Shown here in pieces: positions 49,735-52,156 of a DNA stretch of 64,000 nt. Position 1 is the first letter of the stretch. Each line of letters starts with the position of its first letter. The notes beneath the pieces were generated by a model. It saw nothing but the letters and a program-made list of their open reading frames with translations, searched no databases and was not told the origin of the DNA. The translations under genes were made by a program, and so were the position numbers. Origin of the DNA: Brucella pseudogrignonensis (lineage in GTDB: Bacteria; Pseudomonadota; Alphaproteobacteria; Rhizobiales; Rhizobiaceae); contig NZ_NNRM01000017.1 of the NCBI RefSeq assembly GCF_002252525.1, positions 434,001 through 498,000 on the forward strand. The letters are read 5' to 3'.

Positions 49735-50289
49735 TTAGCGCGCGCGACGACGTTCCGCCGTCGGCTGGAAAGCCAGCTTCGAATGATAGCTGCAATATGG
49801 GCTGGATTCACCGGATTCACTGCCGCAGAAGTGGAAATCTTCATTGAGTGGATCGCCGATCGGCCACTTGCAGGTGCGCTCGCTGAGCTGCAGAAGTGTC
49901 AGCTTGCGGGAAATTGGAACAACGACGTCCGACGCTGGGCGTACGACGCGTTCTGTTACGGCATCTGCAACATATTCCATCTGAAGCGCAGTTGCACCGA
50001 CGGTCTGCGTGACAGTTGCTGTGCGAATGGTTGTGGTCGCCTGTGGGCGGCTTGCACCATTGCTATGGGTGGTTGCTGCAGGACGCGGGGTCGCTGCAAC
50101 GGTATTTACTTTTTTACTGCGTGGTGCTGCGGTCGTGGTCTTGCCACGACCCGAAAGCTTCAGGCGGTGCACTTTACCGATCACTGCATTGCGGCTGACG
50201 CCACCAAGCTGCGCTGCGATCTGGCTTGCACTCAAGCCTTCGTTCCATAATTTCTTTAGCAGTTCGACGCGCTCATCTGTCCAGTTCAT
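49735..50289 (-). CDS. gcrA: GcrA cell-cycle regulator
   Basis: 184 residues. The N-terminal HTH NWTDERVELLKKLWNEGLSA and the IAAQLGGVSRNAVIGKVHRL segment are diagnostic of GcrA, the alphaproteobacterial sigma70 cofactor that prefers CcrM-methylated GANTC promoters. The C-terminal CKWPIGDP...FHFCG...YCSYH motif is also present. ATG 50289 is the family start; GGAG lies upstream. Linker residues are Ala/Thr/Lys-rich. Four GANTC sites lie in the upstream region. Confidence 0.95.
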   Translation of the reverse strand: MNWTDERVELLKKLWNEGLSASQIAAQLGGVSRNAVIGKVHRLKLSGRGKTTTAAPRSKKVNTVAATPRPAATTHSNGASRPQATTTIRTATVTQTVGATALQMEYVADAVTERVVRPASDVVVPISRKLTLLQLSERTCKWPIGDPLNEDFHFCGSESGESSPYCSYHSKLAFQPTAERRRAR

Positions 50290-50321
50290 CGCCCTGGGCT
50301 CCAATCAGTTTTCGTTATCCG

Positions 50322-50524: not shown

Positions 50525-50719
50525 AGCTACGCGTATTTCGCGGGTGCATTTCAGAGGGATTTCCCGTCGGGGAAGACATCTGGCGTCTATATATCGACCC
50601 GATCGGAAAAATGCCACCCCTGCAACCGCATAGGTGCCATCTTAATCCCGCTCTTTATAATGTGAGCTTCCCGCATGAACTCATGCATAAAGATGCATGA
50701 TTATCCGGGTGGGCTTTGA

Positions 50720-50748
50720 TTGACATTTTTTTTGCGAGCGCCAATATA
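50720..50748 (+). promoter_or_regulatory. Promoter of the argD leader
   Basis: -35 TTGACA (50720-50725) perfectly matches consensus, followed by a T-rich 17-base spacer and -10 AATATA (50743-50748). The transcript would start near 50755, giving a leader of roughly 190 bases before argD. Confidence 0.65.
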
Positions 50749-50767
50749 CGCGCGGGATTAAATATTG

Positions 50768-50790
50768 CCGCCCTGAGGGCGGTTTTTTAT
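50768..50790 (+). terminator. Early hairpin with T-tract in the argD leader
   Basis: Stem CCGCCC/GGGCGG, a three-base loop, then TTTTTTAT. By form it is an intrinsic terminator, but it begins only about a dozen bases after the predicted transcript start. It may protect the 5' end or act as an attenuator rather than ending another gene, since no plus-strand gene lies before it. Confidence 0.55.
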
Positions 50791-50806
50791 TTCCGCCGGG
50801 AGGACC

Positions 50807-50920
50807 ATGCAAAGACATGTGATCCCCGAACCCGCCAGTGAACGATTGCGTTCATGTGCGGGACATCAACACAATGGGAAACGCTGCCTGACCGGCCCTA
50901 GCCGGAGGCGCTGCATTTAA
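50807..50920 (+). CDS. Arginine-rich 37-codon leader peptide (candidate) before argD
   Basis: ATG 50807 has GGGAGGA ending two bases upstream, a very strong though tightly spaced ribosome site. The frame runs 37 codons (MQRHVIPEPASERLRSCAG at the start, ending GPSRRRCI) to TAA 50918-50920, 24 bases before argD. Seven residues are Arg, and codons 33-35 are consecutive Arg (CGG AGG CGC). They lie on the 3' arm of the hairpin 50886-50909. This is the layout of a ribosome-stalling sensor of arginine or its precursor. No family is recognised with certainty. Confidence 0.5.
   Translation: MQRHVIPEPASERLRSCAGHQHNGKRCLTGPSRRRCI
50831..50909 (+). ncRNA. Structured leader RNA elements within the argD leader
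   Basis: Hairpin 1: CCCGC (50831-50835) pairs with GCGGG (50858-50862) around an inner stem TGAACG/CGTTCA. Hairpin 2: GCCT/AGGC (50886-50909) enclosing a perfect CCGGC-CCTA-GCCGG. Both lie inside the leader reading frame, so translation would open them. It may belong to one of the alphaproteobacterial amino-acid or polyamine leader motifs (such as those described for speF or serC), but I cannot confirm which. Confidence 0.45.
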
Positions 50921-50944
50921 AAGGCTAATGGAGGCCTGACTGCA

Positions 50945-52156
50945 ATGACCGACGTTACGACTGTGCAACCGCTCTACGACACTTACAATCGTGCGGCTCT
51001 GCGCTTCGAGCGAGGTGAGGGCATCTGGCTTATTACCGAAGGCGGCGACCGTTATCTCGATTTCGCAGCTGGCATCGCGGTTAACTCGCTGGGCCACTCC
51101 CATCCGCATCTGGTTAATACGCTTAAAGAGCAGGCTGACAAGCTCTGGCACCTGTCGAACCTCTATGAAGTTCCTGGTCAGGAAAAGCTTGGCAAGCGTC
51201 TCGTAGATGCGACTTTTGCAGACAAGGTATTCTTTACCAATTCCGGTGCTGAAGCGCTGGAATGCGCGATCAAGACTGCGCGCCGCTATCATTATGTAAA
51301 CGGCAATCCTGAGCGCTTCCGCGTCATCACCTTTGAAGGCGCGTTCCACGGCCGTACGCTGGCAACGATCGCTGCTGGCGGTCAGGCTAAGTATCTCGAA
51401 GGTTTCGGTCCGAAGGTCGAGGGCTTCGATCAGGTTCCATTCGGCGATGAAGCGGCGCTGCGTGCCGCAATCACCGAAGAAACTGCGGCAATTCTGCTTG
51501 AGCCTGTGCAGGGCGAGGGCGGTCTGCGCGGGTTCCCTGAAGAATTCATGCGTCTTCTGCGCAAGATCTGCGACGACAAGGGTCTTCTTCTGATCCTCGA
51601 TGAAGTGCAGACCGGCGTTGGCCGTACCGGCAAGCTTTTCGCCCATGAATGGTCGGGTATCACGCCAGACATCATGGCAGTCGCAAAGGGTATAGGCGGT
51701 GGCTTCCCAATGGGCGCTTGCCTTGCAACAGCAGAAGCTGCCAAGGGCATGGTGGCCGGCGTTCACGGCACGACCTATGGCGGCAACCCGCTTGCTATGG
51801 CTGTTGGCAATGCCGTGCTTGATGTCGTGCTTGCTGACGGCTTCCTTGAAAACGTGCAGGAAACTGCGCTGACCATGAAGCAGGGCCTTGCCTCGATCAT
51901 CGATCGTTTTCCGAACGTTATTTCGGAAGTACGCGGTCGCGGCCTGTTGATGGGCATCAAGTGCGTGGGTCCTAACGTGAACCTCATTCAGGCTTTGCGT
52001 GATGAGCATCTGCTCAGCGTTGGCGCTGGCGACAATGTCGTTCGTATCCTGCCTCCGCTGGTTACGACGCCTGAAGAGGCCCGTGAAGCACTGGCACGGA
52101 TTGAAGCGGCCGTTGAACGGCTTTCCGTCGCAAATCCGATCAGCAAGACGGCATAA
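50945..52156 (+). CDS. argD: Acetylornithine aminotransferase
   Basis: 403 residues. Class III PLP aminotransferase making N-acetylornithine from N-acetylglutamate semialdehyde in arginine synthesis; homologues also serve lysine synthesis. The PLP lysine is K248 ([14 protein letters not shown]). The Asp that holds the ring nitrogen is in [14 protein letters not shown], and [14 protein letters not shown] binds the phosphate. GGAGGC precedes the ATG. argF follows five bases after its stop. Confidence 0.95.

What the first reader, a model, noticed from the sequence alone, without database searches (positions are those of the whole stretch)
50720..50944. Arginine-rich leader frame and hairpins before argD-argF: candidate arginine-sensing attenuator
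A consensus promoter starts a leader of about 190 bases. It contains a 37-codon frame with an ideal GGGAGGA site and seven Arg codons. Three of these are consecutive (CGG AGG CGC, 50903-50911) and occupy the 3' arm of a GC-rich hairpin (50886-50909), 24 bases before argD. Another hairpin (50831-50862) and a hairpin with T-tract (50768-50790) lie in the same leader. This fits control by ribosome stalling at Arg codons, or on the nascent peptide, comparable in principle to the enteric SpeFL or trp/his leaders.
Basis: partly seen in the sequence, partly recalled or inferred. Interest (0 to 1): 0.78.

Follow-up and report, generated by a model that had tools for sequence, protein, structure and literature searches.

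The report
Terminator at argD's transcription start
The proposed arginine-sensing mini-peptide is not conserved, but the same leader holds something more widespread: where transcription of the arginine gene argD should begin there is a stop signal for RNA polymerase, kept in most sampled members of a bacterial order in which the usual arginine repressor was not found.

Summary
The described features exist, but the Arg-rich 37-codon frame is not a conserved leader peptide. It is recognisable and intact in 3 of 35 same-genus genomes, and single-base deletions break it in two relatives whose leaders are 91-94% identical.

What is conserved is a promoter (TTGACA, 50720) followed at once by an intrinsic-terminator hairpin and T-tract (50767-50788). 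TTGAC followed 25-60 nt later by such a hairpin precedes argD in 78 of 80 named loci, against 12 of 697 other TTGAC sites there. It precedes argD in 53 of 65 order-level genomes, against argG 0/29, carA 1/30 and argB 0/30. Outside the order it is rarer (14 of 53). In most named loci the hairpin begins at about the predicted +1 to +6. In a Mesorhizobium the leader is little more than terminator plus ribosome site, so argD should need read-through. ArgR was found in 0 of 61 order genomes.

Best reading: a start-site transcription attenuator of argD without leader peptide or visible antiterminator. The signal is unknown and no transcript data were available. Rivals: a 5'-end stabilising hairpin, or a tiny RNA.

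The parts
50720..50725 (+). -35 element TTGACA of the argD promoter
   Evidence: Invariant TTGA in alignment A1; TTGAC at a fixed distance from the hairpin in relatives
50742..50748 (+). -10 element (CAATAT/AATATA, 17-nt spacer), inferred
   Evidence: Aligned with AATAGT/GATAGT/GATATT of relatives; no start-site mapping was available
50754..50757 (+). predicted transcription start, inferred from promoter spacing
   Evidence: Spacing only; not shown
50767..50783 (+). intrinsic-terminator hairpin GCCGCCC-TGA-GGGCGGT
   Evidence: the corresponding hairpin found before argD in 35 of 35 genus, 78 of 80 named, and 53 of 65 order loci
50783..50792 (+). T-tract of the terminator (TTTTTTATTT)
   Evidence: At least 5 T of 8 after the hairpin chosen without looking at T: 35 of 35 genus, 73 of 74 named, 48 of 48 order loci
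50807..50920 (+). 37-codon Arg-containing frame claimed as leader peptide; not supported
   Evidence: Intact and recognisable in L001, L002, L004 only, of 35
50930..50934 (+). Shine-Dalgarno of argD, inside the octamer TGGAGGCC
   Evidence: Octamer invariant in 26 aligned argD starts of this genus and neighbouring genera
50945..52156 (+). argD, class-III aminotransferase
   Evidence: PF00202, E 3.4e-116; 95% identical to the argD-like gene of Brucella rhizosphaerae; the name argD rests on context and recalled knowledge
49735..50304 (-). gcrA, divergent neighbour, which rules out an upstream co-directional gene end for the terminator
   Evidence: PF07750, E 2e-64; divergent in 35/35 genus, 80/80 named, 26/29 order and 11/29 class loci

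Best explanation
The element is a start-site transcription attenuator of argD and probably of the argF-like gene behind it. A sigma-70-type promoter fires into an intrinsic terminator that begins within the first bases of the transcript (about +13 in the window, about +1 to +6 in most relatives). RNA polymerase either stops after roughly 25-45 nt or reads through, and only read-through makes argD mRNA, which then carries the hairpin at its 5' end. There is no leader peptide and no visible antiterminator RNA, because almost no RNA precedes the hairpin. Read-through must therefore be set by the polymerase, by a bound factor that may recognise the conserved GCCGCC/GGCGGC stem, or by the choice of start site. 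Shown: the arrangement and its conservation. Inferred: the start site, that termination really occurs, and that it is regulated.
For: TTGAC followed 25-60 nt later by a terminator-like hairpin: 78 of 80 named argD loci against 12 of 697 other TTGAC sites in those loci, and 1 of 123 in the window, which is this one. Against dinucleotide shuffles, using the last TTGAC at least 60 nt before the gene: named 74 of 78 (2.1 expected), genus 35 of 35 (0.5), order outside the window's family 48 of 57 (1.0). Control genes of the same order: argG 0/29, carA 1/30, argB 0/30; any terminator-like hairpin in the 330 nt upstream: argG 3/29, carA 2/30, argB 0/30, argD 56/65. The T-tract is present even when hairpins are chosen without looking at T. 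Stem core GCCGCC..GGCGG[C/T] plus T-tail in 68 of 79 named argD loci, against 0 of 68 other strong terminators there (rule not identical, many of the 68 are homologous copies). A covariance model of the module finds one match per genome at E <= 0.0011 in 71 of 111 family genomes; the 12 fetched top hits all lie before argD. gcrA is divergent upstream, so the hairpin ends no upstream gene there. In L111 (Mesorhizobium) only 33 nt separate hairpin and ATG, leaving no room for a second promoter. No ArgR in 0 of 61 order and 0 of 58 class genomes.
Against: No transcript, start-site or read-through data. A terminator this close to the start may work poorly (recalled, not tested). The stem is nearly invariant within the family, so covariation is weak: one two-sided change in 36 sequences, 12 of 500 shuffles as high. 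12 of 65 order genomes fail the strict rule (in several a hairpin is visible by eye without TTGAC). Outside the order only 14 of 53 have it (one of the 53, L153, belongs to the order). 20 of 111 family genomes had no model match at E <= 0.5. No conserved element other than promoter and hairpin is seen order-wide, so nothing names the regulator or ties it to arginine.
Confidence: 0.5

Rival explanations
1. The hairpin is a 5'-terminal stem-loop that protects argD mRNA from decay (ompA-like, recalled), and its likeness to a terminator is incidental.
For: In most relatives the stem begins at or next to the predicted first nucleotide, where such protectors sit.
Against: A stabiliser does not need the T-tract, yet it is present in 73 of 74 named and 48 of 48 order loci with hairpins chosen without looking at T. 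In the window and most of its genus the stem starts 45-48 nt after the -35, not at the 5' end.
Confidence: 0.2
2. The promoter and terminator make a tiny RNA of about 25-45 nt that acts in trans; argD read-through is a side effect.
For: Promoter plus terminator form a closed short unit; short attenuated leaders with effects in trans are reported for greA (passage in PMC2965389).
Against: Between -10 and stem the sequence is not conserved order-wide, and the module stays tied to argD: 12 of 12 checked hits.
Confidence: 0.1
3. The inverted repeat is a DNA operator overlapping the start site, read by a repressor.
For: It overlaps the start region and its arms are conserved in sequence.
Against: Arm spacing varies from 3 to 16 nt (Phyllobacterium 13-16, L035 15) and its distance from the promoter shifts by more than 10 nt, unlike a protein site; the T-tract is unexplained.
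Confidence: 0.08
4. The terminator shields argD from stray upstream transcription, and argD has its own promoter downstream of it.
For: The window leader is long enough (162 nt after the hairpin) to hold another promoter.
Against: In L111 only 33 nt lie between hairpin and ATG, and a promoter sits directly before the hairpin throughout.
Confidence: 0.07
5. Ribosome stalling on the Arg-rich leader frame regulates argD.
For: The frame exists, with seven Arg codons, three in a row.
Against: Frame kept in 3 of 35 genus genomes; frameshifts in close relatives; chance frames are common; the terminator lies upstream of it.
Confidence: 0.02

Closest known systems
rimP-leader (Naville and Gautheret 2010, PMC2965389; passages seen)
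   Same: A short conserved 5' terminator before a gene, sequence conserved in the stem, no visible antiterminator, and a distance to the gene that varies (4-130 nt there)
   Different: Another gene (rimP-nusA-infB) and another stem motif (GGGc..gCCC; here GCCGCC..GGCGGC). The main text names neither argD nor rhizobia; its supplementary lists could not be read
AlpA / phage Q processive antitermination (PMC9371919; abstract and passages seen)
   Same: A promoter with an intrinsic terminator downstream that polymerase must pass to express the genes
   Different: Those need a factor-binding element between -35 and -10 and a -10-like pause element; no spacer element is conserved order-wide here and no such factor was sought
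trp/his-type leader-peptide attenuators
   Same: Amino-acid biosynthesis gene and a terminator in its leader
   Different: No conserved peptide; the terminator precedes the frame; nothing precedes the hairpin that could act as antiterminator
SpeFL / speF leader
   Same: Arg codons in a short frame, superficially
   Different: No Rfam match; frame not conserved

Membership tests
Leader-peptide (trp/his-type) attenuators | conserved leader frame with regulatory codons | tested here: not met
   3 of 35 same-genus genomes keep the frame
Leader-peptide (trp/his-type) attenuators | terminator downstream of the frame, with an alternative antiterminator | tested here: not met
   Terminator 50767-50788 lies upstream of the frame 50807-50920
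speF / other Rfam leaders | match to the family model | tested here: not met
   3 matches at E <= 5, all implausible and below gathering scores: mir-23, TarB, snoZ112
5' intrinsic-terminator attenuators without antiterminator (rimP-leader-like) | terminator hairpin with T-tract between promoter and gene, conserved among relatives | tested here: met
   78 of 80 named and 53 of 65 order loci; controls
5' intrinsic-terminator attenuators without antiterminator (rimP-leader-like) | conserved stem sequence | tested here: met
   A1; 68 of 79 named loci
5' intrinsic-terminator attenuators without antiterminator (rimP-leader-like) | premature termination and read-through in the cell | not testable with these tools
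   No transcript data
rimP-leader itself | upstream of rimP, with a GGGc..gCCC stem | tested here: not met
   Upstream of argD, stem GCCGCC
AlpA/Q antitermination | conserved element between -35 and -10 | tested here: inconclusive
   Spacer not conserved in 50 order loci; partly (GAAA) in 78 family loci, which are related sequences
AlpA/Q antitermination | antiterminator protein | not tested
   No search made
ArgR regulon | ArgR in the genome | tested here: not met
   PF01316: 0 of 61 order and 0 of 58 class genomes; rings in 9 of 14 control genomes
5'-terminal mRNA stabilisers | stem at the transcript's very 5' end | tested here: inconclusive
   Spacing fits in most named loci but not in the window or most of its genus; start sites not mapped

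The most novel reading that the evidence does not exclude
An order-wide attenuator that works at the moment of transcription initiation. The terminator occupies the first transcribed bases, so small shifts in start site, or a factor reading the GCCGCC/GGCGGC stem as it leaves the polymerase, decide between a tiny abortive RNA and argD mRNA. It would stand in for the missing ArgR in these bacteria.
Probability: 0.2. Interest if true: 0.85.

Novelty: new variant of a known kind. Interest (0 to 1): 0.58.

Why it matters
If true, an essential step of arginine synthesis in rhizobia, agrobacteria and their kin is gated by a terminator placed on the transcription start. That would test how close to its promoter an intrinsic terminator can work, and how bacteria without ArgR control arginine genes. 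It also shows that an attractive Arg-rich leader frame can be a bystander of an unrelated conserved element.

Tried and rejected
Leader peptide: rejected. Rfam families: none credible. Pfam on the frame: none.

Loose pattern search for TTGAC..GCCGCC..GGCGG in 151 family genomes: uninformative, since the reversed-pattern control gave similar numbers. DNA similarity search with the module in 297 family genomes: 15 matched at E <= 0.01, and outside the genus these were short fragments of 22-28 bases, so whole-module DNA similarity does not reach beyond the genus. In one search the longer query (50700-51060) matched 35 of 60 genomes, all of the window's genus, and 0 of the 25 others.

Other copies of the module: ten weaker model hits were fetched. 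Two lie before argD (L297, L298); L294, L295 and L296 look like gene-end terminators and L293 like chance; L300 shows only a 27%-identity aminotransferase match that does not lie downstream of the hit; L299, L301 and L302 were not followed.

A spacer-embedded operator: not conserved order-wide. A Shine-Dalgarno hairpin at 50920-50940: too short to judge.

Literature: searches in an open-licence library found no description of this argD element; listings, abstracts and passages only were seen. Supplementary start-site tables (for example of PMC3616915) could not be opened.

Rows dropped: L107 had no hairpin under the finder's rule and is missing (n 79 before other filters); loci without TTGAC at least 60 nt upstream were left out; one argG locus with a short upstream stretch was left out. 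L153, a member of the order, sits in the class set.

Full report
Setting. Between gcrA (49735-50304, minus strand, PF07750) and argD (50945-52156, PF00202) lies the leader in question. An argF-like frame follows argD (recalled from sequence motifs, not searched). The class and order labels of the G genomes are the tool's kinship labels; that the order is Hyphomicrobiales (Rhizobiales) follows from the named loci and recalled taxonomy.

The observation. The promoter-like TTGACA, the T-tailed hairpin, the 37-codon frame with seven Arg codons and the two further hairpins are in the sequence. The -10 is only moderate, the strict scan did not report this promoter, and the frame's Shine-Dalgarno lies only 3 nt from its ATG. 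Frames of this sort are common in shuffles of the leader: 287 of 1000 hold a closed frame of 25 codons or more, 86 of 1000 one with at least 5 Arg and an Arg pair.

The frame fails. In 35 same-genus genomes, the window's own included, my rule frames intact, but 5 of these (L010, L019, L021, L024, L025) encode unrelated peptides reached through many indels. Only L001 (the window's own genome), L002 (identical over the matched stretch) and L004 keep the peptide. L003 and L005, with leaders 94% and 91% identical, are broken by two and three single-base deletions. L035 has 62 nt and L015 90 nt between hairpin and gene. Selection does not hold this frame.

What is held. Upstream of argD, relatives share TTGACA, a -10 about 17 nt on, and then a GC-rich hairpin with a T-tract. 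Dinucleotide shuffles give 2.1 where 74 of 78 are seen, 0.5 where 35 of 35 are seen (genus), 1.0 where 48 of 57 are seen (order outside the window's family) and 0.9 where 13 of 46 are seen (class set). When the best hairpin is chosen without looking at T, at least 5 T of 8 follow it in 73 of 74 named, 35 of 35 genus, 48 of 48 order and 12 of 24 class loci.

Controls and reach. In the order sample 53 of 65 argD upstreams pass (3 of the 65 are from the window's family). Upstreams of argG, carA and argB from the same order give 0 of 29, 1 of 30 and 0 of 30; for any terminator-like hairpin within 330 nt the figures are 3/29, 2/30 and 0/30, against 56/65 for argD. TTGAC itself is present in 26 of 30 carA but only 8 of 29 argG and 7 of 30 argB upstreams. 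Outside the order 14 of 53 pass, so the feature is mainly one of this order. The twelve fetched top hits all lie before argD.

Geometry. From the first T of TTGACA to the stem, the distance is 34-40 nt in 69 of the 74 passing named loci, which places the stem at about -1 to +6 of the predicted transcript. In the genus it is 45-48 nt in 32 of 35, and 47 in the window, about +13. Start sites are predicted from spacing only. In L111 (Mesorhizobium) the hairpin is 2460-2476, the T run 2477-2482 and the ATG 2510: the leader is hairpin, T-tract and ribosome site, with no room for a leader frame or a second promoter. gcrA is divergent in 35/35 genus, 80/80 named, 26/29 order and 11/29 class loci, and the same divergence is stated for S. 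meliloti in PMC3616915 (passage), so the hairpin does not end an upstream gene there.

Sequence of the stem. Loops vary from 3 to 16 nt, which speaks for an RNA hairpin rather than a DNA operator. Within the family the stem is almost invariant, GCCGCC/GGCGGC, so covariation is weak: one compensatory pair in 36 sequences, reached by 12 of 500 shuffles. At order level stems differ more (16 distinct first-six-base arms among 53), but those hairpins were picked for pairing, so this is description, not a test. The core with T-tail is found before argD in 33/35 genus, 68/79 named, 32/62 order and 4/52 class loci, and in 0 of 68 other strong terminators of the named loci (many homologous copies, slightly different rule). 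Gene-end terminators with this core do occur elsewhere in the window's genome (L294, L295).

Mechanism. A terminator between promoter and gene, kept for that position, makes attenuation the simplest reading, and argD must be made by read-through wherever no other promoter fits. Because almost nothing is transcribed before the stem, classical antiterminators, riboswitches and leader peptides have no room; that leaves the polymerase's own pausing factors, a factor reading the stem, or choice of start site. The rimP-leader (PMC2965389, passages) is the nearest described case: conserved terminator stem, no antiterminator, a protein proposed. AlpA/Q antitermination (PMC9371919, passages) shows that a promoter-loaded factor can carry polymerase past such a terminator, but no promoter element other than -35 and -10 is conserved order-wide here. 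ArgR, the usual arginine repressor, was found in 0 of 61 order and 0 of 58 class genomes, as PMC5343134 says of non-gamma classes (passage). A link to arginine is therefore plausible but unshown.

Verdict. I hold the start-site attenuator at 0.5, chiefly for want of transcript data.

Noticed in passing
window 50929-50936: Octamer TGGAGGCC around the argD Shine-Dalgarno is invariant in 26 aligned starts of this genus and neighbouring genera; it could form a 3-5 bp hairpin with GGC/GGG upstream.
   Followed up: partly
window 50882-50914: A second GC hairpin just before the argD ribosome site recurs, in varied form, in many same-genus genomes (by eye) but not in the wider family.
   Followed up: no
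window 50634-50661: The strict promoter scan reports GTGCCA-16-TATAAT here; a transcript from it would end at the same terminator.
   Followed up: no
window 50683-50698: Two ATGCAT repeats 10 nt apart upstream of the argD promoter, retained in several same-genus genomes (by eye).
   Followed up: no
L013, argD leader: The leader holds near-identical tandem copies of a stretch of roughly 45 nt between terminator and argD.
   Followed up: no
L029, argD around residue 96: The tblastn alignment of argD splits in two pieces, perhaps a frame break or an assembly error.
   Followed up: no
class loci such as L257, L267, L268, L274: Outside the order many argD promoters read TTGACA..GATACT followed by a C-rich stretch and a T run, without the hairpin.
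   Followed up: no
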